A stretch of DNA of 52,797 nucleotides. Origin: a virus. Both the position numbers and the translations under genes were made by a program. Below, piece after piece: positions 6,416 to 52,797 of the stretch. Below the pieces are notes generated by a model. The model had not been told where the DNA came from and searched no databases. It saw only the letters and a list, made by a program, of their open reading frames with translations. Numbering within the stretch: position 1 is the first letter of the stretch; every line of letters starts with the position of its first letter. The stretch is taken from IMG/VR virus record IMGVR_UViG_3300020731_000022, positions 1 through 52,797 of that record, one strand, 5' to 3'.

Positions 6416-6445
6416 TTAAGCTAAAGCCCCTAGTTATATTAAATA

Positions 6446-10458: not shown

Positions 10459-10974
10459 CTAGTTCGTAGCGAACGGTGTCAGGCGGATAGTGATCTGCGT
10501 TGGGCTGATTACATCAATCAACTCAGCTACAGCAACAGCTCCGAGGGTTCCAGCGGAACCTGCAGCTGAAGTAATCTGACCATTAGCGTTGGTGTACAGT
10601 AGTGTACGGGCACCAGTGGTTAGTACGTTGTAAGCTTGGGTTGTGTCGAAAGCCGGAGCAGTGATGGTGAAGAACGCGTTAGAACCACCGAGCCATACAG
10701 CCCATGCGTTAATTCCAACTTGTGTTACATCATCAATGTTTGGGTTACGGTCAAGCGCAGACAAGCCGAATGGCTTAGCACCAGATACAGCCACAGCAGT
10801 TCCAGCATTAGCAACAGTGTCAGCTCCGGTACGGTACATAACCATACCTGAGTAGATGTTTGTTGTGTCAGATGGATCTAGGAATGTGTTGTATGGCGTA
10901 GCCTCGTACTTCTCGTACAATGGAGTGCACGTACGGTGTACCCCAACGTTAGCTATGCTATTTAGTTGCAGCAT
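10459..10974 (-). CDS. Probable capsid decoration/stabilisation protein
   Basis: Small (171 aa), Ala/Thr/Gly-rich, mostly beta, starting MLQLNSIANVGVHRTCTPLYEKY. The SGMVMYRTGADTVANAG and GTLGAVAVAELIDV segments resemble the beta-tulip-like folds of head decoration proteins. It lies 20 bp upstream of the capsid gene and shares its C-ending codon preference, fitting a protein made in capsid-like amounts. The family is not certain; a minor capsid or vertex protein is the main alternative. Confidence 0.6.
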   Translation of the reverse strand: MLQLNSIANVGVHRTCTPLYEKYEATPYNTFLDPSDTTNIYSGMVMYRTGADTVANAGTAVAVSGAKPFGLSALDRNPNIDDVTQVGINAWAVWLGGSNAFFTITAPAFDTTQAYNVLTTGARTLLYTNANGQITSAAGSAGTLGAVAVAELIDVISPTQITIRLTPFATN

Positions 10975-11000: not shown

Positions 11001-12329
11001 TTATAGTGTCATCAGCCAGTCGTCAGACGAAATGTCCTGACGCTTAACTGTTGAGGCCGTTGTCAACCGACCCATTTCGGGCAAACGATTACTTCCGCTT
11101 GCCACCTTTTGGCTCCGGGGTTGACGTGCCCCAGATTCTTCGAGCATGTCTAGTGAAGCTACAAAACCAGCTAGCTTAGCACTATCCATTTGCTCAAACT
11201 TTGCAAGATGCTTTGCACGGTCGTCAGGATTTACCATGCCCATCTTTTCTAGACGGTCTACAACAATTAGACTGTCATAAATTCTTTCACGGCTCTCTTG
11301 TACAGCAGCGACGATGCCCTGCTGGTAAGGAACGAGTGCAGGGTTAGTGCCATCGTAAGGCCATACTTCTTGCTTGTGAGGCTCATCACCAGGAACGATT
11401 CCAGTTTCAGCACCATCGTTGTAGAATGGTACGTAACCAGCATCTTCGCCGTTAACTTCCTCAGGCTCAAGAACATTTGTTGTGAAGCTAGGTGACATTA
11501 CACGTTCACGGTCCCAAACACCAGCTTGGTCATCAAGGTCACGAACGTCTACAACAACGTTAGTCTCTTGGTTGCCGTTAGTAGCTTTTTTATTTCCCAT
11601 CTCGTCGTCACTCTTCTTATTGGCATTCTTGCATCCATTAGGACCACAAGTTTTTGAACCTTCTGTAGCAGGATTGTCGCATCCTTCACCAGTGCAAACC
11701 TTTGAAGCAACCTTGTTAATGTCTTTAAGAAGTCCTTCAAGAGATTCAAGGTCAACAGCAGCTTGGTGGTAGTTAGAAGTAGTAGCAAGGTCGTTCTCAA
11801 TGTCAAGTACGATTGAAGCTACAGTACCGATTACTTGTTGTACTTCATCATCAGTTGAAGCAAAACGGAGTACAGTGCTTGCTTCGTTAGAAGCAGTTAG
11901 TAGATTTGAAAAATCAAAATCAATTTGATTCTCAATAGCATCACGGATCTCACGTGAAGCCTTGTAGACATTGTAAAGGCTTTCGTCAATTGGATTAACG
12001 CTTGCCTGCATTGGTCGACCTTCAGCGTATACAGCGCTTCCAAGCCCAGTGTTAGGTCCACCCATGATTTCTCCTGGCTTACCATTTGATGGGTCAGCTG
12101 CTTCAAGGTCAGTTGTTTGAATCATCATACCAACTGGTTGATCGGCTACAGTGTTACGCATTTCTTGAACAGGCTTAGGTGCAACTGTTACACCAGGAGC
12201 TTGGTCAGTACCAACAGTATTCTGTTGATCGTAAGGCTGCTGACGGGGGGTTGTTGATTGGCCAGAGAGTCCGTGCATTTGGTATGCATTGTCGGCTGTC
12301 TTGACCAGTTCGTTATCGAAACGGCTCAT
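11001..12329 (-). CDS. Possible scaffold/head protein with Cys pairs, 442 aa
   Basis: Hydrophilic, low-complexity protein starting MSRFDNELVKTADNAYQM. Residues about 115-205 are predicted helical (IREIRD-type segment, then IGTVASIVLDIEND); a Cys cluster follows at about 210-228 (CTGEGCDN and CGPNGC), a possible zinc knuckle. Later comes an acidic stretch and a helical region with EKMGMVNPDDRAKHLAKF. Its place between the protease and the decoration/capsid genes is where scaffolding proteins usually lie, so a scaffold or internal head role is inferred from synteny. Its ATG overlaps the upstream stop as ATGA (12326-12329). Confidence 0.5.
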   Translation of the reverse strand: MSRFDNELVKTADNAYQMHGLSGQSTTPRQQPYDQQNTVGTDQAPGVTVAPKPVQEMRNTVADQPVGMMIQTTDLEAADPSNGKPGEIMGGPNTGLGSAVYAEGRPMQASVNPIDESLYNVYKASREIRDAIENQIDFDFSNLLTASNEASTVLRFASTDDEVQQVIGTVASIVLDIENDLATTSNYHQAAVDLESLEGLLKDINKVASKVCTGEGCDNPATEGSKTCGPNGCKNANKKSDDEMGNKKATNGNQETNVVVDVRDLDDQAGVWDRERVMSPSFTTNVLEPEEVNGEDAGYVPFYNDGAETGIVPGDEPHKQEVWPYDGTNPALVPYQQGIVAAVQESRERIYDSLIVVDRLEKMGMVNPDDRAKHLAKFEQMDSAKLAGFVASLDMLEESGARQPRSQKVASGSNRLPEMGRLTTASTVKRQDISSDDWLMTL

Positions 12330-13075: not shown

Positions 13076-13737
13076 TAGTAACGCTTTTTCTGCAGCAACC
13101 AAGCTGACTCATCTGCTGGCTCAAATACAAAGCTCAGTTCAAAGAAATTTGGGTTAATGCAGCTTTCATATACAAGACTTTCAACACGCTTACCGGCCTT
13201 GTAAACCGTCACGTTCCTACCCTTGAGGCGAGGAATGTGAGTACAAAATTCTGATGGCTTGCTAGCATATTTACCGCATGCTGAGCATTGTGTACCATCG
13301 ACATCAGCTCCCATGCTTACTGCATTTAGCTGACCATTTTCGATAGCTGAAGCAAGCTTAGGGAATGTGTTGGCGTCTACTTCCATGAGGCAGTAAACAC
13401 TAGCATCGATAATACCAGATGCTAGCTTAGTCTCACGATAAATAGCATCAAGAATAACTCCGCGAGCACGGTCTGGATCTGAGTTGTTGTGCTCAACGTA
13501 AATTGGACGACCAATAAAAGTCTTGTAACTTTTCTTAATCTGGTCTACAGGCCATCCATCGTAATTTGCATTTACTCTTGAAGAAATAGCTCTTGAAGCT
13601 GTGTAAAGGAAACCCTTTTCAGGAGTAAATGGCTTAAAGTCTTCGAACGTGACAGGGTGAAGGTCGATAGCTTGATCTTTGTCAGAGGCCATACTTCTGC
13701 CCATGAGACTAATTGTGGGTGCACCAAATTTAATCAT
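13075..13737 (-). CDS. Prohead maturation protease
   Basis: 220 aa. Sequence features match herpes-type capsid maturation proteases: FIGRPIYVEHNNSD with the catalytic His at 83, the nucleophile Ser141 in NAVSMGADVD, and a conserved ELSFVFEPADE block near the C terminus. After the Ser there is a zinc-like insertion C151/C154 (CSAC) with C165 and H167 (FCTHI), a feature I associate with the protease variant of large actinophages and jumbo phages. It cleaves scaffold and capsid N-terminal segments during prohead maturation. It lies between the portal/membrane genes and the scaffold-like gene and is TAATG-coupled to the zinc-ribbon gene. Confidence 0.85.
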   Translation of the reverse strand: MIKFGAPTISLMGRSMASDKDQAIDLHPVTFEDFKPFTPEKGFLYTASRAISSRVNANYDGWPVDQIKKSYKTFIGRPIYVEHNNSDPDRARGVILDAIYRETKLASGIIDASVYCLMEVDANTFPKLASAIENGQLNAVSMGADVDGTQCSACGKYASKPSEFCTHIPRLKGRNVTVYKAGKRVESLVYESCINPNFFELSFVFEPADESAWLLQKKRY

Positions 13738-14177: not shown

Positions 14178-14502
14178 CTAGCAAACCTTCGTGATAACCT
14201 AGATGACGGTTCAAGTCACGGCCAATACCATCGACTTTTTTCTCTACACGGTCCCATTGATCTTTAGAACTAGATCCACCATTATTACGGTGTTGAGAAA
14301 GCAACTGTTCTAGTTTGTCATCCATATCTGCTTTAGTAGCAGCAAGTTCTTCTTCAATTCGAGTAAGCTCTTTAGAACTGTGACGAGTAAAATATTTTTG
14401 AACAACTTTAGCTAGTGCTGCAAGAGCACCTACGGTAAAGAAAGCATTAGCAATGTAGCCAAACCATACATTGGAAGAATTAAACAATGAGGATGCTAAC
14501 AT
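14164..14502 (-). CDS. Small membrane protein with coiled-coil tail, 112 aa
   Basis: A single transmembrane helix at about residues 13-35 (IANAFFTVGALAALAKVV) is followed by a basic stretch (QKYFTRHSSKEL) and a long helix (about 47-100) with heptad-like Leu/Ile spacing. The topology resembles class III holins or spanin-like proteins, but no lipobox or sequence match is seen. It starts 2 nt after the stop of the upstream 62-aa gene and overlaps the DUF1003 gene at its 3' end. Function unknown. Confidence 0.65.
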   Translation of the reverse strand: MLASSLFNSSNVWFGYIANAFFTVGALAALAKVVQKYFTRHSSKELTRIEEELAATKADMDDKLEQLLSQHRNNGGSSSKDQWDRVEKKVDGIGRDLNRHLGYHEGLLDADN

Positions 14503-14750: not shown

Positions 14751-17096
14751 TTATAAATCTTCTTCTTTAGTAGGATCTACTTGTTTTCTTGCAGGTTGAT
14801 CCATTCCGCCTTCACCACTACTGTGTTCATCAAGGTTTGTAGGTTCTTGAATCATTGGTTCATCGATGATAGAAGCTAGATGTTTTTTAAATTCATCTTC
14901 ATTGAATTTTTCATAACTATCATCTGCAACAATTTTCATACCACGAGCAAGTTTCATACGTTTACGTTTCTTAGATTCAAACGGTACAGCAAACTTCATA
15001 CGATCACCATATGTAATTGTTTCAAATGGTTCATCAAATTCGTCATCATCCCAACCAGCTACGCTAGCAGTCTTCTTTTTAGGTCCATTCTTAGGACCCT
15101 TCTTTGAAGGCTTAGGAGCATTCTTACGTTGTTCATATGATTCTGCAGGACGCTGTCTTTCACCACCACGTTGCGTCTGTTGCATTTGTTCTGCCATTTG
15201 GTTAACACTTGGGTATATCTGCGCACCAGCAGCAGCATCACTGTTGCCAATGGCTTCTCCTGTTAAGTTAGGAGCTGCAGGTGGTACGATCAAGCTTTGC
15301 ATAGCACCTGGGGCAAGTTGTGCTCCGAGTGCTGGGTTTTCCAACATGGCGAGGTAGGCCTGGTATTCCTGTACATATTCTGGTGGAATAGGAAGTTGTA
15401 GAACCATAAGACGGTTAAACAATTCCTTCTTGTACTGTTGCTCAGCAACAACAGTCTTAATCTTTTCATCCTTACGAGCATCGATTTCATCATCAAAGTC
15501 AATCGGGATATTAACAGCAAGTGTGCTGAGTGAAATTGGAAAACCGGCAGCCATAAGTTGCTGCAAGAATCCACGTTCAATTGTTTCGTCTCTCAAGTTC
15601 ATTGAACGGAAACGTACTTCAGGGATAGCTAGCTTTGGACGTTCTTCAACGTATTCAGCACCTGTTTCCTCATCAACCATGAGAACAGTTTCCATAATAG
15701 GAACCATTTGACCACCGACGTTGCGCATTTCATAGTGACCCTGTCTTTCTGCCACTGGTTCCATACGGCTACGAATAAATTGTTCAATCTTGTGCTGATA
15801 TGTGCTAAGCATCTGAGTAATAAGTTCACGGTTAAGTGCACCAGCAGCATAAGTACCACCGTTACCACCTTGTAGAAGGTCAGCACCGATACCGAATACT
15901 TGCATAACCTTTGACTCAACACGCATGAAGTCTTGGTCAAGACGTGGCATTGATTCACGACCGAATGCATTTTGAATTGTAAGACCATGGTGATAAGTCA
16001 TCAAACGGAAGTCAGAGTTGATTGCCATAGCCAAGTCATCTCGCAATGATTGGAGTTCTTGTGCATCTGGAATCCATGGACCATCTTGGTCTACGTCTGG
16101 AAGACCCAGGGTAGCAAGAATAAGAGGAGAATAAAGTCGGTCAGCAATAGCATCCTGAGCGGCGTTGAGACTTTCTTCCAACATAAGCATACGGAAAGCA
16201 CGCAGAAGAATAGGAGTACCGTGTTCGCTCCATGGGTTTGTCTTAAACTTGATTTGCTTCATGATTACATCTGAAACAGGAATTTCTTTATCTTGGCGTG
16301 CCCATGCTACAACGTCTGGATAGAGTTGCATAAGCATTGCATACTCTTGAGGAGGGTCACGACGTTCAATAAGGCGCTTGATTTCTTCAGGTACCTTAAT
16401 GTGATATTGATAAGTTCTTAGAGCACGATTCTTTGCAACAATAACGTCATTAGGGTTGATGATTTCATCTTCTTCCCATGCACCAATACCATCGTGCCAT
16501 GAACCCATAGCAAAACATTCTCCAACGGTCCAGTGTTCACGACCAAGGTCAAAGAGGAACTCATTGTAGTTTAGACCATCAAAGAAAAGGTCATTATAGA
16601 AATCGCTAATACGTTTGTCTGGATGAATAAGCTCAACATCCAACAATGGGTAGCGAGTATAGATATCAATAAGAGAAGGAACTAGATAGTGAGTTGTGTA
16701 GAGTAAACGAGCCCAGTCACGGATCTTACGTGTCTGCTCATCTGGGTCTTCCATGTTGAACCACCAGGTACGTTCACGCCAGTATTCAAATGGATCGTGC
16801 AACTTAGGCCATGCCCATTGAGCATCTGAACCTGTTGCAGCAGCAGTTCTGCGATTAGCAGTATTTGCTATTCCTTCAAGATTAAAACCTTGTTTAAGAT
16901 TATTTAATCTTTCTCGTCCTTCTGTAGGACCTAGAAGTGGACTGTTGCCCATAGCACCCATAGCGCCTGGAGTACGTGCCATGTTAAGCAAGTCTTTATT
17001 AGCAAGACGACGTGTTACTGGGTTCTTTGGGCCTGTGATGCCTGCACTTTTTAAGCGATTAAGCTCAGCAGAGGCACTCCAGTCTTCTCTTGACAT
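14751..17096 (-). CDS. Portal protein
   Basis: 781 aa, long for a portal. The core (about 90-530) has the features of a large-phage portal: an aromatic segment (DPFEYWRERTWWFNMEDPDE), DLGREHWTVGECFAMGSW, INPNDVIVAKNRAL, and FMRVESKVMQVFGIGADLLQ followed by the Gly-rich GGNGGTYAAGALNRE loop. The C-terminal 180 residues are a Gln/Lys-rich linker (KPSKKGPKNGPKKKTASV) and an acidic end with DEFKKHLASIIDEP. The portal forms the dodecameric DNA gate of the head. Its ATG follows an AGGAAAC; a terminator-like hairpin follows the stop, and the protease and capsid lie downstream in normal order. Confidence 0.85.
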   Translation of the reverse strand: MSREDWSASAELNRLKSAGITGPKNPVTRRLANKDLLNMARTPGAMGAMGNSPLLGPTEGRERLNNLKQGFNLEGIANTANRRTAAATGSDAQWAWPKLHDPFEYWRERTWWFNMEDPDEQTRKIRDWARLLYTTHYLVPSLIDIYTRYPLLDVELIHPDKRISDFYNDLFFDGLNYNEFLFDLGREHWTVGECFAMGSWHDGIGAWEEDEIINPNDVIVAKNRALRTYQYHIKVPEEIKRLIERRDPPQEYAMLMQLYPDVVAWARQDKEIPVSDVIMKQIKFKTNPWSEHGTPILLRAFRMLMLEESLNAAQDAIADRLYSPLILATLGLPDVDQDGPWIPDAQELQSLRDDLAMAINSDFRLMTYHHGLTIQNAFGRESMPRLDQDFMRVESKVMQVFGIGADLLQGGNGGTYAAGALNRELITQMLSTYQHKIEQFIRSRMEPVAERQGHYEMRNVGGQMVPIMETVLMVDEETGAEYVEERPKLAIPEVRFRSMNLRDETIERGFLQQLMAAGFPISLSTLAVNIPIDFDDEIDARKDEKIKTVVAEQQYKKELFNRLMVLQLPIPPEYVQEYQAYLAMLENPALGAQLAPGAMQSLIVPPAAPNLTGEAIGNSDAAAGAQIYPSVNQMAEQMQQTQRGGERQRPAESYEQRKNAPKPSKKGPKNGPKKKTASVAGWDDDEFDEPFETITYGDRMKFAVPFESKKRKRMKLARGMKIVADDSYEKFNEDEFKKHLASIIDEPMIQEPTNLDEHSSGEGGMDQPARKQVDPTKEEDL

Positions 17097-28515: not shown

Positions 28516-29748
28516 TCACTTGTTCAAGATATTTTGCAATTGTGCAATTCTTGAACTAACTCTTGATCCAGCATTTCCCATTGCTTGTCCACCAATACTT
28601 TGAGGTGCCGGAGTTGATACTGGAGTAGGTGTTGGAGCAGCAGGAGTGGCTGGTGCAACAGGTGTCATTGCAGGTGCTGGGGTTGATACTGGAGTAGGAG
28701 TTGGAGTTGGAGTAGGTGCTTGTGTTGCAGGAGCAGGAGCAGCAGGTGTTGGTGCAGGAGTAGATGGAACTGGGGTTGCTTGTGATGTAAGAGGAGTTGT
28801 TGTTGGTGTTGAAGTAGTGGTGGTTGCAGGTGCCGGTGTCGAAGTTGCAGTAGATGAAGTAGGTACAGGAGCTGGTGCTGCAGGAGTAGGTGTGCTTATT
28901 TGATTTTGTGCAATGTTAGGATTAGTACTTATTGCAGGTGCAGGTGTGCTTACAGCAGGAATTGGAGAACTTATAGTGGGAGCAGGTGCAGCAGTTGGTA
29001 CTGTTGGTGCTACTACAGGAGCAGGTGCAGGGGTTGCTGCTATAGGAGTAGCTTTAGGAACTGCTGCTACAGGAGCAGGTGTAGCACTACCACCGGTACC
29101 TGGCATCATAGCAATCATGCCATCTTTAATAAAATTTGTATCGTTTGATCTCTTCAATCTCTCAGATAACTTAGCAATTCTTGCACTAATCTTAGAAGAA
29201 GCATTTTGCATTTGCTGTTCATCAATTCCTTGTGGTGGTGTAGCTTGTACAGGTGGTTGTTGAACAACATCACTAGAAACAGGAGCAGCAGGAGCAGAAG
29301 TAGGTACAAATGTTGTTGGTGCAGGAGTTGTTGGAGCTACAGGTTTTGTAGAATCAATAGATGTATCAACACCTTGTTGTGGAGCTTTTGGAAGATTGTT
29401 TTCATCAATAGTAGGATCACCAGTTAATCCAGGGTGCGTATTAACAGGAGTTGCAGGTGTTGTTTTAACAGGAGTTGCAGGTGCAGGTGTTGTTGCTTTT
29501 TGAAAAGCAGTTGATTGCGCTGGGGTAGCAGTATTTGTTAATGGTTTGCCAGGTGCAATTACACCAATACCACCGTTAGCGCCACCAGTAGGTGTAGAAA
29601 CTGGTTTTGAACTTGCTGGAGTTACACCAGAAGCTTGTTGGTGAGCAGCTGTTTGAGCAGCAGTAGGTAGAGTTACTGTAGGTGGTGCAGCTGGTGTTTT
29701 AGCAACACTTCCACCAGGATTAGCTGGTGCTAGTAATGCTATACGGTA
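28516..29748 (-). CDS. Pro/Ala/Thr-rich protein, likely made by -1 frameshift
   Basis: The open frame runs from the end of the upstream gene to 28516 but has no ATG, GTG or TTG until ATG 29211, so about 180 codons of the same Pro/Ala/Thr-rich character (ATTPAPATPVKTTPATPVN-like) have no start. They sit exactly in the -1 frame of the upstream gene, entered at A AAT TTT (29748-29754). Residues after the junction begin YRIALLAPANPGG. A helical module (RIAKLSERLKRSNDTNF) near 29.15 kb copies the end of the upstream protein (KIARLSYFLKESKDTNF). Alternatives: independent initiation at 29211 (231 aa), which lacks a good ribosome binding site, or a fixed indel. The linker may act as a flexible tether in the virion. 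Confidence 0.6.
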   Translation of the reverse strand, partial: YRIALLAPANPGGSVAKTPAAPPTVTLPTAAQTAAHQQASGVTPASSKPVSTPTGGANGGIGVIAPGKPLTNTATPAQSTAFQKATTPAPATPVKTTPATPVNTHPGLTGDPTIDENNLPKAPQQGVDTSIDSTKPVAPTTPAPTTFVPTSAPAAPVSSDVVQQPPVQATPPQGIDEQQMQNASSKISARIAKLSERLKRSNDTNFIKDGMIAMMPGTGGSATPAPVAAVPKATPIAATPAPAPVVAPTVPTAAPAPTISSPIPAVSTPAPAISTNPNIAQNQISTPTPAAPAPVPTSSTATSTPAPATTTTSTPTTTPLTSQATPVPSTPAPTPAAPAPATQAPTPTPTPTPVSTPAPAMTPVAPATPAAPTPTPVSTPAPQSIGGQAMGNAGSRVSSRIAQLQNILNK

Positions 29749-34520: not shown

Positions 34521-35723
34521 TTAGTATCTAGACTTCTTTTCAATAATGATAGCTGGACGATTACTCATAGCAGCATTCATAAACGCAAGAACTACTTCTC
34601 TAGCATCGGTAGGTTCAATTACTGGAATAGTTACTGCAGTTTTGAGAACATCAGTAAAGTCTTGTGAGTGTGTAATACCAGAATAGAACGGACCAGAATC
34701 AGCAGACACTGCACGCACAATAACAGGCACTTTGAATTCACCGTGCGAGATTCTTTCAATCTTGTCTAAGTGGTTTACAATAGCATCCATAGCAACCATC
34801 ATAAAATCATGACGTTCGAAGTAAACAACTGGCTTAAAACCTTCAAATGACATACCAATAGCTAGACCCATCATCAAGTTTTCAGCAACAGGTGTTTCAA
34901 TTTTTTGTTCTGCTGGTACACCTTTCAATGTACCCATAGCATCACCTCTTGCTACGTTATAACCAATAAAGACAGCGCCTTCACTACCTAATTTTGTCAT
35001 AACTTGTTCCATAGTATCCTTATACGAAGCACCTTCAGTATCTACAGGAGGATTCAAATATTCATATGGTTCAAGAGGTGGAAAGTACTCATCGTCAGTC
35101 TTTTTTACAGCTTGCGACAAGTCAATCATACCGGGTTTACGTGCATGTGGGTAAGTAATGTCATATTGATATTTCTTTACACACTTAAAAGGCCATTCAA
35201 AATGAGCAGTGCTACCCCAACGCTCTTCATTGGTTGCTTCTACTGAACGGTTGTTAGCTTCAATCACAAAGGTACATGGTAGATCCATGCCTTCTACATA
35301 ACGAGCAGCTTCGAACAAGTGACCATTGTCTTCTGTACCATCTCCAACAAAACACCAGACCTTTTGGTCAGATCCCTTTTTCTTTAGAGCAAGAGCAATA
35401 CCAGCTGCGATAGCAGGTGTACCACCAATGATTGCAGAGCAAAAGAAATTACGTTCTCTGTCATAAACAAACATACTTCGTCCATTAAGGATGCGATCTT
35501 CCAATACATCCTCAGGGATACCGTGTAGGAGAGCGTGATAGTGGCTACGGTGGTTACTAATAACGTAATCACCTTCCTTGATATCCTTAAAGATATCAAT
35601 TAGCTGTTCTTCATTGCCACCTGATAGGTGAAACAAGAATGGCAATTTATTATCTAAGTAAAGATCACCAATTCTATTCTCAAAAGCAATTAGCTCTTCA
35701 GGTGTCCAATTACGCTTATCCAT
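34521..35723 (-). CDS. Thiamine-diphosphate enzyme, E1-like, two catalytic domains fused
   Basis: The start is ATG 35723 (TAAAATG), 400 aa. Residues 1-235 are an E1-alpha-like PP domain: SNHRSHYHALLHGIP, AIIGGTPAIAAGIALAL, and the cofactor motif G127-D-G with N157-N158. Residues 245-400 are an E1-beta-like PYR domain with catalytic E281 in ETPVAENLMMGLAIG and YFERHDFMM. The C-terminal transketolase-C domain, normally present in E1-beta and transketolase, is missing: the chain stops at IIIEKKSRY. It probably acts in two-carbon or acyl transfer on a sugar or ketoacid precursor of the cassette; product unknown. Confidence 0.8.
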   Translation of the reverse strand: MDKRNWTPEELIAFENRIGDLYLDNKLPFLFHLSGGNEEQLIDIFKDIKEGDYVISNHRSHYHALLHGIPEDVLEDRILNGRSMFVYDRERNFFCSAIIGGTPAIAAGIALALKKKGSDQKVWCFVGDGTEDNGHLFEAARYVEGMDLPCTFVIEANNRSVEATNEERWGSTAHFEWPFKCVKKYQYDITYPHARKPGMIDLSQAVKKTDDEYFPPLEPYEYLNPPVDTEGASYKDTMEQVMTKLGSEGAVFIGYNVARGDAMGTLKGVPAEQKIETPVAENLMMGLAIGMSFEGFKPVVYFERHDFMMVAMDAIVNHLDKIERISHGEFKVPVIVRAVSADSGPFYSGITHSQDFTDVLKTAVTIPVIEPTDAREVVLAFMNAAMSNRPAIIIEKKSRY

Positions 35724-35724
35724 T

Positions 35725-36738
35725 TTATTTATCTTCCATTTCAATCATGATTCTACCGGCACTACCGTTCTTAAGTGTATCAAATGCTTTGTTAACATCA
35801 TACAATTTATATTGATGAGTTACAATTTTATCAATATTAAGTTTACCATCTTTGTTGAGGCTGACATATCGGGGAATATCTTTCGAGGGATCTGTCTTGC
35901 CACCTTGTGTAGCTTTGATGCTGAGTCCGTTGCCATTAAAGAAAGAAAGAGCGTTAGCGATCTCCAAAGATTCACCTGGTTTAGGTTGACCCACTAGGAT
36001 CATTCTACCATTGTTAGATAGATAACCAAAACTCTTTTTGATTGCATCAATGTTGCCCGTAGTATCAATTACTACGTCTACTTTTCCATCAAATTCATAT
36101 TTGTTACTAAAGAACTTGTCAGCACCAGCATCAAACGATAACCATGCTTTATCTTCTTTATTATCAATAGCAACAATTGGATTCACACCACGTAAAACTG
36201 CACCTTGGATTAGGTTTAGACCAACTCCACCAGTACCTATGATAGCAACGCTTTCACCAATCTTAAAATCACACTCATTGTCAATAATGCCAAGTGCAGT
36301 AGTTAAACTACATCCAAGAAGGGCAGCAAAATGATTGGGAGTATCAATAGGAACTGCAGTAAGTCTATTTTCTGAAACTATAGAGTATTCACTTAGTGTG
36401 GTAACCTTACCACTACTGATAGTCTTGCCATTAAGTACATATTCTGGGAACGGAGCTTCAATTCCATTTCCTACACGCCAATGCATGACTACTTTGTCAC
36501 CAGGTTTAACAGTGGTAACACCATCACCAATTTCTTGTACAATGCCACAGCCTTCGTGACCCATAAGGTGAGGTAAAAATTTACCATTACCTTTATTGCC
36601 ATTAATCTCATGTAACTGAGAACCACAGATACCGCTAACAAGTACCTTTACAAGCACTTGGCCAACTTTCAATGATGTAAGTTCTATGTCTTCTACTGAT
36701 AGTGGAGCGTTTAACTCTCTTAGAATAGCAGCTTTCAT
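35725..36738 (-). CDS. Zinc-type medium-chain alcohol/polyol dehydrogenase
   Basis: 337 aa MDR protein. Catalytic zinc ligands C38 (SGICGSQ) and H61-E62 (MGHEG), NAD(P) Rossmann loop GTGGVGLN (168-175), acidic D in VAIDNKED favouring NAD. The structural-zinc lobe (four Cys around 95-112) is absent: the lobe region has no Cys. Related to TarJ-like or threonine/sorbitol dehydrogenases; oxidation or reduction of a sugar or ketol in the cassette is inferred. TAATG overlap with the upstream GT gene; two-base gap to the TPP enzyme. Confidence 0.85.
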   Translation of the reverse strand: MKAAILRELNAPLSVEDIELTSLKVGQVLVKVLVSGICGSQLHEINGNKGNGKFLPHLMGHEGCGIVQEIGDGVTTVKPGDKVVMHWRVGNGIEAPFPEYVLNGKTISSGKVTTLSEYSIVSENRLTAVPIDTPNHFAALLGCSLTTALGIIDNECDFKIGESVAIIGTGGVGLNLIQGAVLRGVNPIVAIDNKEDKAWLSFDAGADKFFSNKYEFDGKVDVVIDTTGNIDAIKKSFGYLSNNGRMILVGQPKPGESLEIANALSFFNGNGLSIKATQGGKTDPSKDIPRYVSLNKDGKLNIDKIVTHQYKLYDVNKAFDTLKNGSAGRIMIEMEDK

Positions 36739-47453: not shown

Positions 47454-48046
47454 TAATAAACATCCGTTATTCCATCTGTATCGTCAGAAGGAGGGTTTAG
47501 AGGTGGAAGTAAACCAGTATCTGGATCAAGACCTTCTGGTGTCAATCCTTTAATAACATTTTTAGCTTTGTTAATTTTATCTTTTACATAAACACCAGCT
47601 ACACCTGGTGTTGTTTTTAACATTTGTTTAGTATTTTGTCTTTTTTTAGGATCTGTCAAAATTTTAGCTGCATTTGTAATATCGCTCATCATTGTTTTTG
47701 GCCCTTCTGGCCAAACAATATTATACATTTGAGTTAAATGGCTTCCAATCGAGTCTGATGCAACTGGGCCTGTTTTGGTAGCGTTATTTAAATTGTTATT
47801 TAAATTGCTATTAAAACTATTTTGTGTTTTGGTAGCAGAATATCTAATAGCCCACTTCATTCCAACTGTTCCTTGTACTGGAGTATTGGAATTTTCTTCT
47901 TGTGTTTTTTCTGAAGGTTTGGAACGAAAAATTTTAAAATGTGGTATATGACCAGTTTGAAGAAGTGGTGTAATAATATTCATTGCTTGGTTAATACAGT
48001 CTGTACAACCTATTTTAGCATCAATATGCCCTAGCTTACATGTCAT
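47453..48046 (-). CDS. Cys-pair N-terminal protein, 197 aa
   Basis: Starts MTCKLGHIDAKIGCTDCINQ with C3, C14 and C17, a possible partial zinc site. An internal MKWAIRYSATKTQNSFNSN (about 63-81) repeats the RYS and FNS motifs found at the N termini of neighbours. The rest is Asn/Lys-rich, ending with a Pro/Asp tail. Overlaps HNH gene by 4 bp (ATGA-type). No family recognised. Confidence 0.55.
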   Translation of the reverse strand: MTCKLGHIDAKIGCTDCINQAMNIITPLLQTGHIPHFKIFRSKPSEKTQEENSNTPVQGTVGMKWAIRYSATKTQNSFNSNLNNNLNNATKTGPVASDSIGSHLTQMYNIVWPEGPKTMMSDITNAAKILTDPKKRQNTKQMLKTTPGVAGVYVKDKINKAKNVIKGLTPEGLDPDTGLLPPLNPPSDDTDGITDVY

Positions 48047-48465
48047 TTGATAAGACCTCTTACATATTTTTCAGCTTCGTAGTCAGCAGCTGCTGCAGTA
48101 TGTATTCCACCATGGCCTCTATGATGAAACTCACAAAGCCACTCAAGATTATCTGCGCTTTCTACCCAAGCACCTACATGATCTGGGTCTGAGATACCAG
48201 GGTAGTCTATTTCTAGCCACTTAAGGTCGACTCCGTTCTGTAAAGAGAACTCAACATGGCTGTGATGCAACTCTAGAGGTTTATCTAGAGCACATTCACT
48301 AAAATCATTACGATGCAAACCAACAGAACACTGCGCAGTGTCTTTCGTTCTGCGTCTGTAAGCGTTGAAGTCCCTGTAGTGAGGGTCTTTTTCGCGCTCC
48401 GGATGATCAGGATAGCAAATAGTATATCTATGAGTAACATTTTGCTCGTGTTCTTCGACTGACAT
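48043..48465 (-). CDS. HNH-family nuclease
   Basis: 140 aa. HNH motif: LELHHSHVEF (H67-H68), N106 in DNLEWLCEFHHRGHGG (H114, H115, H118). C46, C58 and C111 are extra residues. The arrangement is typical of free-standing phage HNH endonucleases; DNA nicking or a homing/packaging-associated role is possible. It lies downstream of the 52-aa gene and promoter at 48.67 kb. No intein, intron or adjacent terminase is seen. Confidence 0.8.
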   Translation of the reverse strand: MSVEEHEQNVTHRYTICYPDHPEREKDPHYRDFNAYRRRTKDTAQCSVGLHRNDFSECALDKPLELHHSHVEFSLQNGVDLKWLEIDYPGISDPDHVGAWVESADNLEWLCEFHHRGHGGIHTAAAADYEAEKYVRGLIK

Positions 48466-48470
48466 AGTAA

Positions 48471-48629
48471 TTATTCACTATCTACAGCAGAAAATCCATC
48501 CTGATACGTGCTATTTGTATTAATTTCTTCACTAAAATGCTTATTTACCTTAACTGAGGACATTTGTGTACGTACTTTGTCGTAATATTCTTGTGTAGTA
48601 CAACCTATACAGTTGCAATTTTTTAACAT
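48471..48629 (-). CDS. Small Cys-motif protein, 52 aa
   Basis: Read directly: ATG 48629 has AAGGA 7 nt upstream and follows a strong promoter. The product starts MLKNCNCIGCTTQEYYDKV with a CNCIGC cluster and has a hydrophilic tail ending DGFSAVDSE. It is the first gene of a transcription unit that leads into the HNH nuclease (gap 5 nt). Its Cys motif matches the Cys-rich theme of the window. Function unknown. Confidence 0.6.
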   Translation of the reverse strand: MLKNCNCIGCTTQEYYDKVRTQMSSVKVNKHFSEEINTNSTYQDGFSAVDSE

Positions 48630-48644
48630 AAATTATCCTTTTTA

Positions 48645-48674
48645 AATATATATAAGAGCGCGGGGGTCTGTCAA
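48645..48674 (-). promoter_or_regulatory. Sigma70-type promoter
   Basis: Minus strand -35 TTGACA (48669-48674, perfect) and a TA-rich -10, TATATA at 16-bp or TATATT at 18-bp spacing. The spacer contains an unusual GC-rich run (GACCCCCGCGC). The start ATG (48629) with AAGGA lies just downstream. It should drive the 52-aa gene, the HNH nuclease and onward. Confidence 0.65.
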
Positions 48675-48697
48675 GTCTATTCGGTGAAAATTTTAAA

Positions 48698-50035
48698 TTA
48701 TTTTTCGGTTTTGAACACTTCTGGATTGCCTTGGATCATTTCCATAAAGTTTTCATCAGTCTGTGGGTTGTAATCAGCTTGCCAAGTTGGTGCAGAATCC
48801 ACTCTAGATCGATTATTTCGTTCTAAATGATCACGAACTAGTCGGTGAACTAAACTATGTACTCTGTTGGAACGCCAGTGAGCTGAAAAAGGATCTTTTT
48901 TAGCAACATTTCCCATCTCAGCCATGTTTCCTACATCTGGAATGTCTTGTGGATAGCCTGCAAAAAATGATTCACGAACACCTGGATGCTTACTAGTAGC
49001 AAGTTTTGATAGATTCTGTGCATCAACGACGTGACTCATAGGGTTTAACTGGTTATTTATGACGTGGTGAATGTTAAATGTCTGAGTAAAATCAGGAGTT
49101 CTTGCCATTTCCCATAGTCTTACATGCATTGGATCATTACCAATTAATGCAGTATCACCCAAAGTTTCTCGAATGTTCTTCAATGTACCATTTGCAACAA
49201 CATGGAATGGATCTTCTTGAGGAGCTCCTGACATAATACCAACGTATTCTTCACCATGAGAGTCTTTTGGATCAATTTCTTTTCTCTTTGTACCAAAATG
49301 TTCATGCGCAGCATCTTTAGCTATTTGAAAATATTTGCGAAGATCAGTTTCTCCAGCTTCAACAAGTCTTCTCATTCCGGTTGCAGCACCATGAGCAGCA
49401 GCTCCAGCTCTCAAGTAAACAGAATCATGTTTGTGTTGACCAGTTCTTCTGTCAGTCATGTAACGACTAGGATAAATTGCTTCTCCATTTGCATCAGTAC
49501 CAATACGAATAGAATCAGAATTGACTAAAAGTTCATTTAATGAAATAGGTTGGTTGCGTCCTGGTACTTGAAGCATTAACATTCCGTAATCTGCTAAACT
49601 TGGAGTGTGAGTAGCAGTTCCTTGACCATAATGTGGTTTTTCACAACCATCACCCAAGTAGTGTGTGTGACCATTCTTGTCACCAGTAATACCCATTGTT
49701 TCAGAAACTTCACGAGGAATAAGTTCGTCAGCTATACCTTGCCATCTACCACCACATTGAGGGTTAAGACATCTTCTAGCTTGTGTACCATCTTCATTCT
49801 TTTGACCTTCAATAGGTGAACCTTGGCATCCTTCACGATAATGTTCAACCATTCTTTGGTGAGCTCGATCTGTTAGTTCACCATGTGGAGTCGATGAAAG
49901 TTCTGACCAACCTTCTAGTCCACTACCTTGCGGTGGGTAGACTTGTGTAATCTCTTTAACCTTACGCACTTTTATGGCAAGACGTTGTGAATTGAATTTT
50001 CTAACTGGTTGTTTTTTACTGTTAAATGATGGCAT
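48698..50035 (-). CDS. Unknown Cys/His protein, 445 aa
   Basis: ATG 50035 comes 1 nt after the upstream TAA and is preferred to ATG 50065. The protein begins MPSFNSKKQPVRKFNSQRLA with two FNS[K/Q] motifs. A zinc-ribbon-like piece (GCQGSPIEG with CLNPQCGGRWQG) is at about 70-100. Later helical regions include AHEHFGTKRKEID and RVHSLVHRLVRDHLERNNRS. The length and composition resemble the other large zinc-motif proteins; no enzyme is recognised. The sequence suggests a virion or internal protein. Confidence 0.55.
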   Translation of the reverse strand: MPSFNSKKQPVRKFNSQRLAIKVRKVKEITQVYPPQGSGLEGWSELSSTPHGELTDRAHQRMVEHYREGCQGSPIEGQKNEDGTQARRCLNPQCGGRWQGIADELIPREVSETMGITGDKNGHTHYLGDGCEKPHYGQGTATHTPSLADYGMLMLQVPGRNQPISLNELLVNSDSIRIGTDANGEAIYPSRYMTDRRTGQHKHDSVYLRAGAAAHGAATGMRRLVEAGETDLRKYFQIAKDAAHEHFGTKRKEIDPKDSHGEEYVGIMSGAPQEDPFHVVANGTLKNIRETLGDTALIGNDPMHVRLWEMARTPDFTQTFNIHHVINNQLNPMSHVVDAQNLSKLATSKHPGVRESFFAGYPQDIPDVGNMAEMGNVAKKDPFSAHWRSNRVHSLVHRLVRDHLERNNRSRVDSAPTWQADYNPQTDENFMEMIQGNPEVFKTEK

Positions 50036-50036
50036 G

Positions 50037-50543
50037 TTATTCCTTGTTTCGTTGTAGCTTATCAAGCAACTTCAACGCTTTCATTTGTATAAAATCTTTT
50101 TTTGACAAAGCTTCTGGAAGCACACCATCAGTGTTTGCAAAACAGTCTCTACAAATATTATCACCATTAAATGATTTGTTAGTAAGAGGAACATTCTGAC
50201 GACAGCTTGGGCAAACAGTATGACCTGGCATACCAGCATAAGGTGTAAATTCTGAAGTTATTATTTCTTTGTTTATTTCTGGGTTAACTCCACGTAGTGC
50301 TGTATAACATTCTCTACAAATAGGTTGATTGTCATCATCTTTGAATTCCAAGTATCGAAGAAATGGTTCCGTCATGGTTGAGTCAATAGTTATTCGGTTC
50401 AAAGCTTTGCAACTTGGGCATTCACCTAATAGCCTAGTATCTTGGTTGATACGTGATAGACCTTCTGGCGCTACCTTACGACGAACATCTTGTTTTTTCT
50501 CACTACCCAAAGATTGGCGGTATGCGTCCCATAGATCACCCAT
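50037..50543 (-). CDS. Double zinc-ribbon protein, 168 aa
   Basis: Two complete C-x2-C...C-x2-C ribbons: C42/C45 with C76/C79 (CPSC, CREC) and C111/C114 with C131/C134 (CPSC, CRDC). The N-terminal 40 residues and a C-terminal helix (DFIQMKALKLLDKLQRNKE) are charged. The architecture is like transcription-related or ribosome-hibernation zinc proteins, but specific identity is not possible. TAATG-coupled to the upstream gene. Confidence 0.65.
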   Translation of the reverse strand: MGDLWDAYRQSLGSEKKQDVRRKVAPEGLSRINQDTRLLGECPSCKALNRITIDSTMTEPFLRYLEFKDDDNQPICRECYTALRGVNPEINKEIITSEFTPYAGMPGHTVCPSCRQNVPLTNKSFNGDNICRDCFANTDGVLPEALSKKDFIQMKALKLLDKLQRNKE

Positions 50544-51184
50544 TATAGATCGTACCTTTGTTGTTGGTTGATTTCATTACGAACATCTTCGGGCAATTCA
50601 TCCATTGGAATATAATCACCACGTTCATTTTTTGGACGCTTACTCATATCCTTTGGTTGTACGGGTGTACTGTGTTCTTCATTGAATACTTTGCGTATAT
50701 CTTCTATGATATCAGAAGTTTCTGCAGGTTCAAAAGCTACTTCTCTTAGCTTGTTACAATGTTGGCAATCAGGAAATTGCTTTTCGTGGTCAGCGGCAAT
50801 TAGATTCATAACTTCTTGAATTGTACCGGCAGTGGCAACTCCATGTAGAGTTGGAATGATTCTTGTATCAATTAGGTTAGATGCTAATTCGTGGTGTTGC
50901 TTTGCGATTTCATCGCTTGTAGCATACTTAGAACCTTTGTAGTGAGCAGGTAGATCGCTCTCTTTGGCAACAGGGTGTTTTTCCCACATATTGTTAAAAT
51001 GTTGCACCATTTTGTTGGCAGCATCATTTTCTTCCTCAATGGGTTGCATTTGGAAAATACCTGTTCCATAGCAGTAAGGACAATCAGGGTTATTGTTGTG
51101 ACAAGGACATGGGACCATATCATTTTCATAACCCATAGCACTATTAAACTCGTGCCTGTTCATAGCATGCTTAGAATTAAACAT
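50543..51184 (-). CDS. Zinc-motif protein, 213 aa
   Basis: Begins MFNSKHAMNRHEFNSAMGYE, with two FNS motifs. A zinc motif at about 26-42 (CPCHNNNPDCPYCYGTG) resembles one DnaJ-type C-x2-C-x-G-x-G unit; a second pair (FPDCQHC) is near residue 140. A helical region with HELASNLIDTRIIPTLHGVA lies between. TAATG overlap at both ends. Function unknown; part of the zinc-motif group. Confidence 0.6.
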   Translation of the reverse strand: MFNSKHAMNRHEFNSAMGYENDMVPCPCHNNNPDCPYCYGTGIFQMQPIEEENDAANKMVQHFNNMWEKHPVAKESDLPAHYKGSKYATSDEIAKQHHELASNLIDTRIIPTLHGVATAGTIQEVMNLIAADHEKQFPDCQHCNKLREVAFEPAETSDIIEDIRKVFNEEHSTPVQPKDMSKRPKNERGDYIPMDELPEDVRNEINQQQRYDL

Positions 51185-51462
51185 TATTGAATTCTTGCGT
51201 TGTATCTCTGGCTAGTTTGAGCGCCGTGCCAAGTACGTTGGTCGCCAATGAATGGAATTTTTTCGGGGGCTTCTACTACAGGAGCAGTCACTATAGGTTC
51301 CTCAACAGGAGCCTCTACAGGGGCTACAGGGACCTCTACAGGCTCTTCTACAACCACTGGCTCTTCTACCAAAATTTCTTCTTGTAGAACATCACTAAGG
51401 CCTTGTAGAGCTTCCTCTATAGGTGCTTCTATCTTAGTTGTTTTAGGTTTTGCTGTAGCCAT
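51184..51462 (-). CDS. Small Glu/Val/Pro-rich protein, 92 aa
   Basis: AAAGG 8 nt upstream fixes ATG 51462. Starts MATAKPKTTKIEAPIEEALQ with a helix, then Val/Glu/Pro repeats (EEPVVVEEPVEVPVAPVE) forming a flexible acidic arm, and a C-terminal KIPFIGDQRTWHGAQTSQ segment. This looks like a tethering or assembly protein. TAATG-coupled to the 213-aa zinc protein. Confidence 0.55.
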   Translation of the reverse strand: MATAKPKTTKIEAPIEEALQGLSDVLQEEILVEEPVVVEEPVEVPVAPVEAPVEEPIVTAPVVEAPEKIPFIGDQRTWHGAQTSQRYNARIQ

Positions 51463-51631
51463 TAGTAAGGCCTTTCATTTTGGGTAAGTACTACTATCTC
51501 ATTTAGATTGTCAATCATTTTACATTATTTTGAGGGGCCGACGCGCGTAGAACAAAAAAGGACCGCCCGCAAATCGATTTCCTTATGTTTTCGTTACTTC
51601 CCTTATTATATAAGGTCTTTAGCTTATTCTA
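51463..51631. other. Intergenic region with possible promoter
   Basis: Contains a perfect TTGACA at 51509-51514 on the minus strand, but no convincing -10 at 16-18 bp (best GTACTT or TAGTAC), so a promoter is only possible. A GC-rich patch with the 8-bp palindrome ACGCGCGT lies around 51540-51550 in otherwise AT-rich DNA. No gene on either strand. Confidence 0.35.
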
Positions 51632-52039
51632 CTATTCCTCATCATTGTTCCATGTATCATGAGAAACTCCTCCGCTATAATGATCAGCTAATATTGTTAA
51701 ATTCTTAGCGTTATCAACAGCATCGAGTTTTGCTTCTACTGGAGCACCAGGAGCGTGTAGCATTAGTGCTAGTCTATTAGCGTCTGAAGCACGAGCGTGC
51801 AGGCCATATGCAAATGTGTGAGCAGCAGCAATGTCATGTTCACCAGCATTAGTATAAAATTCACCAAGCTCTTCGTGGTGTTCACATTGCTTTAAATGAT
51901 GACCAATAGCATGGGAGAGAGTATTTCTAGTATCTAGATCCGCCAATGACTGGAACTCTTTAGATACGCCCTTAGTGCGTTGTCGATTAATAAAATCAGC
52001 TACGCTAGCTTCTTTACTATATCTATTGTTCCAGTTCAT
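51632..52039 (-). CDS. Unknown protein, 135 aa
   Basis: The start at ATG 52039 is chosen because the protein then begins MNWNNRYSKEASVADFINR, like MTNWNIRYAS at 46266. His-rich segments (SHAIGHHLKQCEHHEELGEF) and two Ala/His-rich helices (AAHTFAYGLHARASDANRLA) follow. The ribosome binding site is weak (AGGA too close to ATG). It is the first minus-strand gene, next to the divergent region. No family recognised; could be an internal or early regulatory protein. Confidence 0.55.
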   Translation of the reverse strand: MNWNNRYSKEASVADFINRQRTKGVSKEFQSLADLDTRNTLSHAIGHHLKQCEHHEELGEFYTNAGEHDIAAAHTFAYGLHARASDANRLALMLHAPGAPVEAKLDAVDNAKNLTILADHYSGGVSHDTWNNDEE

Positions 52040-52060
52040 ACATCCTATGGCGACTAACAT

Positions 52061-52329
52061 CGTTTTTTACAGTGTTTCTGGAAATGGGCCAAGGGGTCCC
52101 CCGCTATTTTTTAAAAGCACTCTTTTCCCTAGGATTAGGGTCCCCTATTGAAAACCCTTTAGTTCTGGAAATGCAAAAATTTGCCATCCTATTATAAGCC
52201 TAGGTAAGAAAAATAACACAGAAAGCTAGAAAGATTATGAAGATCTAGCTGGCTGGCAAGCTTAACTAAGCAAGTCAGCTACCATCCCATGATTGTTTTT
52301 GTGTATACATAAAAGAAAGGAGGGTGAAC
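52061..52329. promoter_or_regulatory. Divergent regulatory region with repeats and competing hairpins
   Basis: No gene is seen in about 270 bp. It holds GGGTCCCC twice (52094-52101, 52138-52145), TTCTGGAAATG twice (52076-52086, 52163-52173), each 16-18 nt before a TATTTT or TATTAT box, and CCCTA-GGAT-TAGGG (52127-52140). Downstream on the plus strand, a stem of AGCTAGA (52224-52230) with TCTAGCT (52244-52250) competes with a stem of TAGCTG (52246-52251) and CAGCTA (52276-52281). These look like promoters and an RNA switch or attenuator for the plus-strand genes. Confidence 0.5.
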
Positions 52330-52452
52330 ATGGCAAAGCCCATGCGTTACGGTGGTTTCAGAGGCATTCCTCAACCATCTAGACAATCAAGGCGTATTGG
52401 TTCTAAACCAGTGCGAGTACAACCAATGTTGCAGAAACGAAGGGGAAAGTAA
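52330..52452 (+). CDS. Very basic 40-aa peptide
   Basis: AAAGGAGG 6-7 nt before ATG is an excellent ribosome binding site. The product starts MAKPMRYGGFRGIPQPSRQS and ends LQKRRGK, with about ten Arg/Lys in 40 residues. It could bind nucleic acid or target a host enzyme. It is the first plus-strand gene after the divergent region. Function unknown. Confidence 0.6.
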   Translation: MAKPMRYGGFRGIPQPSRQSRRIGSKPVRVQPMLQKRRGK

Positions 52453-52460
52453 GCATTCCC

Positions 52461-52476
52461 TCAGGATATGTCCTGA
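52461..52476 (+). other. Hairpin between the two small plus-strand genes
   Basis: TCAGGA-TATG-TCCTGA, a 6-bp stem with a 4-nt loop, lies 8 nt after the 40-aa gene. No U-run follows; an mRNA processing or spacing element is likely. Confidence 0.4.
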
Positions 52477-52537
52477 ACACGACATTAAACTATTCATGAA
52501 GTAAGTTATACATAAAACAAGAAAGTAAGTGATAACC

Positions 52538-52699
52538 ATGAGCATTAGCTCGTACACAATTAATGACTGGAGTAAGTTCCTAGATGAGTTTGAGTCTGGT
52601 GAGCTTGCTCTTCCAATGGTTGAAGTAATTGAACCTGAGGAACCACGTCGCACACACTGCTGTTCTGACTGCGGTTGTGAGTGTGGTGGTTGTAACTGA
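52538..52699 (+). CDS. Small Cys-cluster protein, 53 aa
   Basis: Starts MSISSYTINDWSKFLDEFES, an acidic helix-like N terminus, and ends RRTHCCSDCGCECGGCN with seven Cys in the last 13 residues, metallothionein-like. The ribosome binding site is weak (AAGTAAGTGAT). Possibly a metal-binding early protein. Upstream ATACATAAA leader is shared with neighbours. No family recognised. Confidence 0.6.
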   Translation: MSISSYTINDWSKFLDEFESGELALPMVEVIEPEEPRRTHCCSDCGCECGGCN

Positions 52700-52797
52700 G
52701 CCTCTAGACAGGCTGGCATCACCGGGGTAACTCGGTGGTGGCTACATGTCGTGAGACATCTGCAGTACATACATAAAGTAAGAAAGGAGGATAGCAT
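52700..52797 (+). promoter_or_regulatory. Structured leader and truncated next gene start
   Basis: Three small hairpins are seen: GCCT/AGGC, CACCG/CGGTG with an 8-nt loop, and ATGTC-GTGA-GACAT with a GNRA-type loop. Then ACATACATAAA and AAAGGAGG precede AT at 52796-52797, the probable first two bases of a start codon cut by the window edge. It is a 5' leader of a third plus-strand gene. Confidence 0.5.

What the first reader, a model, noticed from the sequence alone, without database searches (positions are those of the whole stretch)
52061..52329. Divergent control region with duplicated boxes and mutually exclusive hairpins
Two GGGTCCCC and two TTCTGGAAATG copies precede TATTTT and TATTAT boxes, and two plus-strand stems share 52246-52250 so only one can form. 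This pattern suits dual promoters plus an RNA switch controlling the early plus-strand genes.
Basis: partly seen in the sequence, partly recalled or inferred. Interest (0 to 1): 0.5.

Follow-up and report, generated by a model that had tools for sequence, protein, structure and literature searches.

The report
Phage divergent early-gene control region

Summary
The strings are at the stated places. They belong to a ~150-bp intergenic element alignable in six lineages of related phage contigs, with both boxes in their exact form only in the window group and L044. In the large relatives the element lies where a 13-15 kb plus-strand block of small genes leaves mainly minus-strand genes (G003 keeps only a 33-bp piece). 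One relative's plus block encodes an AAA ATPase and WhiB, hence probably early genes of an actinobacterial phage.

Best reading: a divergent promoter/operator region. A rightward -10 (TATTAT, 52190) keeps TANNNT in 5 of 6 lineages. A leftward promoter is TTGG(CC/GG)-17-TAAAAT in 3 of 6, with variants in the other three; the window's -10 has lost its last T. The TTCTGGAAATG boxes overlie the rightward -35 region and the leftward spacer.

The RNA switch is not supported: neither stem is kept in relatives, and in the window both arms pair at once in a shifted register.

Found on the way: plus-block spacers in relatives carry hammerhead-II ribozymes and a covarying tRNA-like element without anticodon arm, not matched by Rfam at its cut-offs.

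The parts
51632..52039 (-). first gene of the leftward block, 135 aa from the likely start MNWNNRY (a longer frame opens at 52060)
   Evidence: ORF 51632-52060; homology in L006 and L007 begins at MNWN; start position and N-terminal tag
52064..52069 (-). leftward -10 position (TAAAAA here; TAAAAT in L044, L006, L014, L018; TATAAT in L053)
   Evidence: weakened in the window, L004 and L005
52076..52086 (+). box 1 TTCTGGAAATG, inside the leftward promoter's 17-bp spacer
   Evidence: changed in L006, L014, L018 and L053
52087..52092 (-). leftward -35-like TTGGCC
   Evidence: TTGGCC or TTGGGG in 5 of 6 lineages, CTAGGG in L006
52093..52101 (.). palindromic box GGGGTCCCC (GGGGCCTCC in L006, GGGGGGGCCCC in L053)
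52138..52145 (.). second GGGTCCCC box (GGGTCCCA in L006, L014, L018; GGGACCCC in L053), preceded by CCTA and 6-7 bases
52163..52173 (+). box 2 TTCTGGAAATG over the rightward -35 region; 84-106 bp from box 1 in the five lineages that have both
   Evidence: missing in L053
52190..52195 (+). rightward -10 TATTAT (TATTAT, TATTTT, TATTTT, TAGGAT in relatives; GTTTTT in L006)
52201..52329 (+). untranslated leader of the plus block with stem A (52224-52250) and the shifted second stem (52251-52280); the start near 52201 is inferred
52230..52246 (+). conserved leader block AAAGATTATGAAGATCT (AAAGRTTATGAACTTCTT in relatives), mostly the loop of stem A; function unknown
52330..52452 (+). first plus gene: 40-aa basic peptide (12 K+R, 0 D+E)
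52538..52699 (+). second plus gene, 53 aa, Cys-rich C terminus, conserved in relatives
   Evidence: sequence; relatives (read the window's copy out of frame)

Best explanation
The region is a divergent promoter/operator element. Rightward transcription would start just after the -10 at 52190-52195 and run into a block of small early genes. Leftward transcription would start from a promoter whose -35 lies in the GGCCAAGGGG box and whose -10 lies at 52064-52069, running into the long minus-strand block. The duplicated TTCTGGAAATG and GGGGTCCCC boxes are placed so that a regulator bound there could act on both promoters at once. The leader hairpins are an ordinary structured 5' UTR, like other spacers of the plus block in relatives, and not a switch. 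Shown: conservation, position at the divergence point, hexamers kept in most lineages. Inferred: that the hexamers are start sites, that a protein binds the boxes, and that the plus block is early.
For: The element is in eight other contigs by exact pattern and in a ninth, L053. With the window these make six lineages after merging near-identical copies. It persists although the first leftward gene differs between several of them (a 135-aa protein, short peptides, MPFIPDPL-type proteins; L006 and L018 share a similar one). A DNA search of seven records found it once in each of four, a 33-bp piece in G003, and nothing in two contigs that end inside the neighbouring minus-strand genes. CCTATTTTAC occurs exactly twice in each of two contigs of 100 and 116 kb, both times flanking the element. 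In G008 and G007 it is where a ~14-kb plus run leaves the minus run, and G003 has the same layout. G007's plus block has AAA ATPase and WhiB domains. The rightward -10 is TANNNT in 5 of 6 lineages, and the leftward site is TTGG-17-TAAAAT in L044, L014, L018 and TTGGCC-19-TATAAT in L053. L053 keeps both promoter positions although its boxes diverged.
Against: Promoter scores are modest (matrix recalled). The window's rightward site ranks 180th of 52,766 plus-strand sites; the leftward site ranks 172nd of 116,114 in G008rc, 146th of 99,682 in G007 and 3rd of 12,441 in L044. The rightward site is not among the four best plus-strand sites of the region in G008rc or G007, and in the window the leftward site is not among the four best minus-strand sites (best there: 52237). 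One search finds 13 promoter-like sites in 48000-52797 against 12.4 expected. L006 breaks the rightward -10, and the window group breaks the last base of the leftward -10 (the patterns of that script were written after reading the sequences). A near-consensus site lies elsewhere, TTGACA-18-TATATT at 48674-48645. No regulator was identified: 51632-52060 and 52330-52452 have no PHROG match. L053 lacks box 2.
Confidence: 0.6

Rival explanations
1. RNA switch: two mutually exclusive plus-strand stems control the early genes.
For: The two stems as written do overlap by 5 nt. A hairpin follows the conserved leader block in the window, L044 and L053. The block AAAGRTTATGAA is kept in six lineages. 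Combining the six shuffle fractions gives p about 0.04 for the upstream half and 0.05 for the downstream half.
Against: In the window both arms pair at once in a shifted register. Over the upstream half only the window and L006 fall below 0.05, and in L006 the fold is a different upstream hairpin; no lineage falls below 0.05 over the downstream half. Pairs are not kept and the consensus fold has no pairs. No plus-strand terminator-like site lies in 52061-52329.
Confidence: 0.06
2. Origin of replication: an intergenic element with repeats and a T-tract at the divergence point.
For: Repeats, an A/T tract next to GC-rich palindromes, and a change of GC-skew sign at the element. The stretch directly left is mildly negative in all four (G008rc last 16 kb -0.040, G007 -0.048, G003rc -0.062, window 30-52 kb -0.067) and the plus blocks are positive.
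Against: The change at the element follows gene strand, and its two sides are unequal in size. A larger difference lies between two stretches with the same (mostly minus) gene strand: -0.111 at 16-56 kb and +0.008 at 56-116 kb in G008rc, -0.132 and +0.012 in G007. The cumulative minimum is about 40 kb beyond the plus block in those two; in G003rc the curve only flattens there and falls again near the contig end.
Confidence: 0.12
3. A lambda-like lysogeny switch: operators between a repressor gene and lytic genes.
For: Duplicated boxes between divergent genes; box spacing 84-106 bp in the five lineages that have both.
Against: No PHROG match for the two flanking genes. In the relatives the leftward neighbours are variable proteins or peptides. 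The rest of the genomes was not searched for repressors or integrases.
Confidence: 0.08

Closest known systems
Divergent early promoter/operator regions of tailed phages (general kind; recalled)
   Same: two gene blocks leave one intergenic region with repeated boxes and promoter-like hexamers
   Different: no repressor gene identified next to it; boxes match no operator known to me; no experiment
Bxz1-like mycobacteriophages (Ceeclamvirinae, Bixzunavirus)
   Same: portal protein about 40% identical over 74% of its length in the best hits (25 of 214 records shown)
   Different: the box pattern is absent from the two records tested, LRRHood and Tonenili; no DNA match in 50,697 phage records at E 1e-5 for window 51400-52797, and none better than E 0.07 for L018's element
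Hammerhead ribozyme type II (Rfam RF02276), for the spacers in relatives' plus blocks
   Same: three matches over the gathering score in G003's plus block
   Different: other relatives match only below the cut-off, and such weak matches also occur in 5 of 14 control genomes; none in the window at the gathering score

Membership tests
Divergent promoter/operator region | divergent gene blocks leaving one intergenic region | tested here: met
   (crude ORF picking)
Divergent promoter/operator region | promoter hexamers retained in both directions | tested here: inconclusive
   rightward 5 of 6, leftward 4 of 6 lineages with both hexamers intact, one of them at 19-bp spacing; modest scores
Divergent promoter/operator region | transcription starts on both sides | not testable with these tools
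   no RNA data
Lambda-like genetic switch | repressor gene beside the operators | tested here: not met
   the two flanking genes have no PHROG match at E 0.01; a repressor unknown to PHROGs would be missed
RNA switch / attenuator | conserved, mutually exclusive stems | tested here: not met
RNA switch / attenuator | known riboswitch or leader family | tested here: not met
   Rfam: nothing here at gathering; one chance-level match at E 0.92 on the minus strand
Replication origin | GC-skew inflection not explained by gene strand | tested here: inconclusive
   leans against: the larger inflection lies elsewhere, but skew is mildly negative directly left of the element
Bixzunavirus | close nucleotide relatedness to members | tested here: not met
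   megablast of 30000-52797 finds only a 294-bp epimerase match in Synechococcus phage S-SM2, held as two records; portal about 40% protein identity
Hammerhead_II (relatives' plus blocks) | score over Rfam gathering cut-off | tested here: met
   3 matches in G003; below cut-off in G007, G008, G011, G001

The most novel reading that the evidence does not exclude
The region starts an early transcript whose cistrons are separated and given defined 5' ends by structured RNA. In relatives, self-cleaving hammerhead-II ribozymes and a tRNA-like element without an anticodon arm (acceptor stem, TGG-bearing linker, T-arm; not matched by Rfam at its cut-offs) lie in the spacers ahead of early genes, so that cleavage and structured 5' ends, rather than many promoters, may set early gene expression. 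The leader hairpins at 52224-52281 would be the first unit of this chain.
Probability: 0.3. Interest if true: 0.75.

Novelty: new member of a known kind. Interest (0 to 1): 0.4.

Why it matters
It locates, with comparative support, a likely main control region of a group of uncultured, probably actinobacterial phages and gives a 150-bp fragment that can be tested directly with reporters. The plus block that it appears to drive carries many structured spacer RNAs in relatives, which makes RNA-level control of early phage genes testable.

Tried and rejected
Tandem plus-strand promoters (CCTATTTTAC at both ends of the element): rejected by inspection, because I saw no common -35 upstream of the two copies (sequences). 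Reading the left copy on the minus strand gives the leftward -10 instead.

A covarying stem B: a hairpin after the conserved block exists in the window, L044 and L053, but its arms are not at the same offset, and on the alignment the pairs are not kept.

A pairing between the two GGGTCCCC boxes (8 pairs on alignment A3) has no pair changed on both sides and follows from the boxes being palindromic.

A conserved leader peptide (MNFF/MNFL after the conserved block): possible, but the window reads only MKI and stops. Several unrelated phage loci found by the leader pattern carry the same string at what looks like a gene start reading MNFLDAL, so a coding reason for the block is not excluded.

A search of genome contigs with the box pattern gave two bacterial MAG matches that do not show the rest of the element. 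Of the 17 stretches, 5 were known and L053 was new; the other 11 (L050-L052, L054-L061) and L049 were dropped as unrelated after reading. G003/L007 was left out of the six-lineage comparison because only a 33-bp piece of the element matches (E 0.016).

The spacer structure comparison (50 plus-block spacers, mean z -2.27; 106 minus-strand spacers, mean z -0.62; three contigs) is biased. The minus set has a median gap of 722 bp, so some of its 'spacers' hold missed genes, and the shuffles were mononucleotide. A looser test of the tRNA-like acceptor stem did not discriminate from shuffles.

Full report
Setting. The window is a linear virus record of 52,797 bases. Its long open frames lie on the minus strand up to 52060, among them a major head protein (9425-10438) and a portal protein (14751-17096). 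The best named relatives of the portal are Bxz1-like mycobacteriophages, about 40% identical over 74% of its length. No named phage in the collection shares the control region: no match for window 51400-52797, and only chance-level matches for L018's element. The plus block of a relative, G007, encodes a WhiB domain and an AAA ATPase. WhiB is known to me as actinobacterial, so the host is probably an actinobacterium; this is an inference.

The observation. GGGTCCC occurs only twice in the window. TTCTGGAAATG occurs three times, the third at 7176-7186 on the minus strand. An 11-base repeat within the region appears in 35 of 2000 dinucleotide shuffles, so the repeats alone would not convince.

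Relatives. Searches with flanking proteins and with DNA patterns gave further contigs with the region. The box pattern GGGTCCCN{1,30}AAACCCNNNNNTTCTGGAA matched 8 contigs; reading the leader-pattern matches added L053, and a third pattern matched these nine and no other. L014, L015 and L016 are identical over the element; over 200 bases L004 differs from the window at 2 and L005 at 1. I therefore count six lineages: window group, L044, L006, L014 group, L018, L053. The ~150-bp element is alignable in all six. The boxes are exact twice over only in the window group and L044; the others carry changed copies, and L053 has no second TTCTGGAAATG. The first leftward gene behind the element differs between several lineages; L006 and L018 share a similar one. 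A DNA search with 52040-52215 in seven records matched once in each of four, matched a 33-bp piece in G003, and found nothing in two contigs that end inside the neighbouring genes. The decamer CCTATTTTAC occurs exactly twice in each of the 99.7-kb and 116-kb contigs, both flanking the element, and not in the other three records searched.

Layout. In G008 and G007 the element is the point from which a plus-strand run of about 14 kb leaves; G003 shows the same layout at a 13-kb run, though it keeps only a piece of the element. Nearly everything else on those contigs is on the minus strand, apart from scattered single open frames that my crude picker lists on the other strand. The window holds only about 600 bases of the plus transcript. 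Its first gene is a 40-aa basic peptide. In 5 of 6 lineages the first gene is a peptide of 40-51 aa with 10-12 K/R and no D/E; in L018 it is a hydrophobic 60-aa protein.

Promoters. Rightward: the hexamer at 52190-52195 is TATTAT in the window and L044, TATTTT in L014 and L018, TAGGAT in L053, and GTTTTT in L006, so TANNNT is kept in 5 of 6. Its -35 region overlaps box 2 and is not a consensus -35. Leftward: TTGGCC or TTGGGG, 17 bases, TAAAAT in L044, L014 and L018; CTAGGG-17-TAAAAT in L006; TTGGCC-19-TATAAT in L053; TTGGCC-17-TAAAAA in the window, L004 and L005 (its patterns were written after reading the sequences). By a simple recalled matrix these sites are only moderately good. In several genomes they are not the best-scoring sites of the region, and the promoter scan of 48000-52797 finds no more sites than expected (13 against 12.4). 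The distance between the two TTCTGGAAATG-type boxes is 84, 85, 87, 87 and 106 bp in the five lineages that have both.

RNA. In the window's leader, stem A (P 0.96-0.99) and a register-shifted second stem (P 0.98-1.00) form together; stem B as written has P of at most 0.002. In the other five lineages the aligned columns keep 3-5 of 7 pairs of stem A and 0-4 of 9 of stem B; in L006 the 3' arm of B is a gap. RNAalifold gives no pairs for the leader. Against this, combined shuffle fractions are borderline for both halves (p about 0.04 and 0.05), though different hairpins contribute to them. The one strongly conserved leader feature is the block AAAGRTTATGAA at 52230, whose role I cannot name; it could begin a short leader peptide (MNFF.. 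or MNFL.. in relatives, MKI in the window).

Origin. GC skew leans against an origin here but does not exclude it. For G008rc the values are +0.008 (56-116 kb, mostly minus genes), +0.136 (plus block) and -0.111 (16-56 kb, mostly minus genes); G007 gives +0.012, +0.156 and -0.132. Equal gene strand with different skew puts the larger inflection about 40 kb beyond the plus block in these two. In G003rc the values are -0.062 directly left, +0.207 in the plus block, -0.155 at 30-70 kb and -0.015 at 70-106 kb, and the cumulative curve has no clear minimum at 70 kb. The stretch directly left of the element is mildly negative in all four sequences.

Beyond the coordinates. Spacers within the plus blocks of relatives look unusually structured (a biased comparison). 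Rfam finds three Hammerhead_II ribozymes over the gathering score in G003, all sense to the plus block (positions). A second search of whole records listed two of these three over the cut-off, and sub-threshold matches in G003, G007, G008 (two), G011 and G001; at that threshold 5 of 14 control genomes also match, none over the cut-off. PMC3088659, of which I saw passages only, describes type II hammerheads as very common in bacteria and places two hammerheads, of PaP3 and Bcep176, in phage intergenic regions.

A second element has a 5-bp acceptor-like stem, a linker with TGG, and a T-arm with the tRNA T-loop, but no anticodon arm. A covariance model from three copies found 13 matches at E up to 1 over 412,599 bases on both strands; 12, the seeds included, are sense in plus blocks, and the other is weak (E 0.22). 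In a search of nine whole records, 10 matches at E up to 0.1 include two weak ones outside plus blocks (18.2 bits). On the alignment of the 13 matches 98.3% of cells pair, 9 of 10 pairs have changes on both sides, and 36 cells are changed on both sides against 9.0 in shuffles (the alignment was fitted to the structure). ARAGORN calls no tRNA at these copies; its one call in the seven loci scanned, an odd 'tRNA-???' at G003rc 29471-29560, overlaps a different T-arm. Rfam, run on L029, L030, L039 and L053, gives none of these copies a match at gathering; the overlaps are sub-threshold: 'tRNA' at 23.9 bits (E 1.6, gathering 29) on the sense strand of one copy, and 'Plastid-ycf2' at 24-27 bits on the opposite strand of three. 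LRRHood and Tonenili have only chance-level matches to either RNA. Literature searches for tRNA-like intergenic elements in phages and for hammerheads in early phage operons showed no description of this in the titles and abstract starts listed (10 of 12, 10 of 14 and 8 of 76 papers; listings only).

Verdict. The boxes are real, and the element that holds them is conserved. The region is most likely a divergent promoter/operator element for the two gene blocks. The RNA switch is not supported. The most interesting lead is the set of structured spacers downstream in relatives.

Noticed in passing
G003 contig, loci L039:3576-3637, 5675-5736, 1338-1399 (minus, sense to the plus block): Three type II hammerhead ribozymes over the Rfam gathering score in the plus block; sub-threshold matches in G007, G008, G011 and G001, but also in 5 of 14 control genomes.
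   Followed up: partly
L029:3818-3858, 4299-4339, 10702-10743, 11288-11329, 13245-13289 (-); L030:5570-5606, 7866-7906, 14271-14314, 15142-15182 (+); L039:692-733, 6386-6426 (-); L038:19931-19976 (-): tRNA-like element without anticodon arm in plus-block spacers, with strong covariation. T-arm hairpins number 16 sense and 0 antisense in the plus blocks of seven sequences, against 2 sense and 10 antisense elsewhere.
   Followed up: partly
window 52746-52759; G008rc 1577; G007 3864, 4290, 5612; G003rc 26725; L053rc 5528: Identical hairpin ATGTC-GTGA-GACAT (GNRA loop) upstream of plus-block genes, sense strand only in the six sequences scanned; none in L044rc.
   Followed up: partly
window 52037-52039 and first leftward genes of relatives: Conserved N-terminal tags (MNW(N/D)xRY or MPFIPDPLSP) in front of otherwise different proteins; in the window NWNIRY recurs near the start at 46266 and FNSK at 50035.
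   Followed up: no
G008rc near 56 kb, G007 near 58-60 kb: GC-skew minimum inside mostly minus-strand genes, a candidate replication origin.
   Followed up: no
G003rc 29471-29560 (L038:17092-17181 minus): ARAGORN calls a tRNA with a four-base anticodon and no assigned amino acid near the end of the plus block.
   Followed up: no
window 34521-36738 (-): Metabolic genes: dehydrogenase E1/transketolase-type and zinc alcohol dehydrogenase-type proteins.
   Followed up: no
window 48645-48674 (-): Near-consensus sigma-70 promoter TTGACA-18-TATATT upstream of the open frame at 48043-48465.
   Followed up: no
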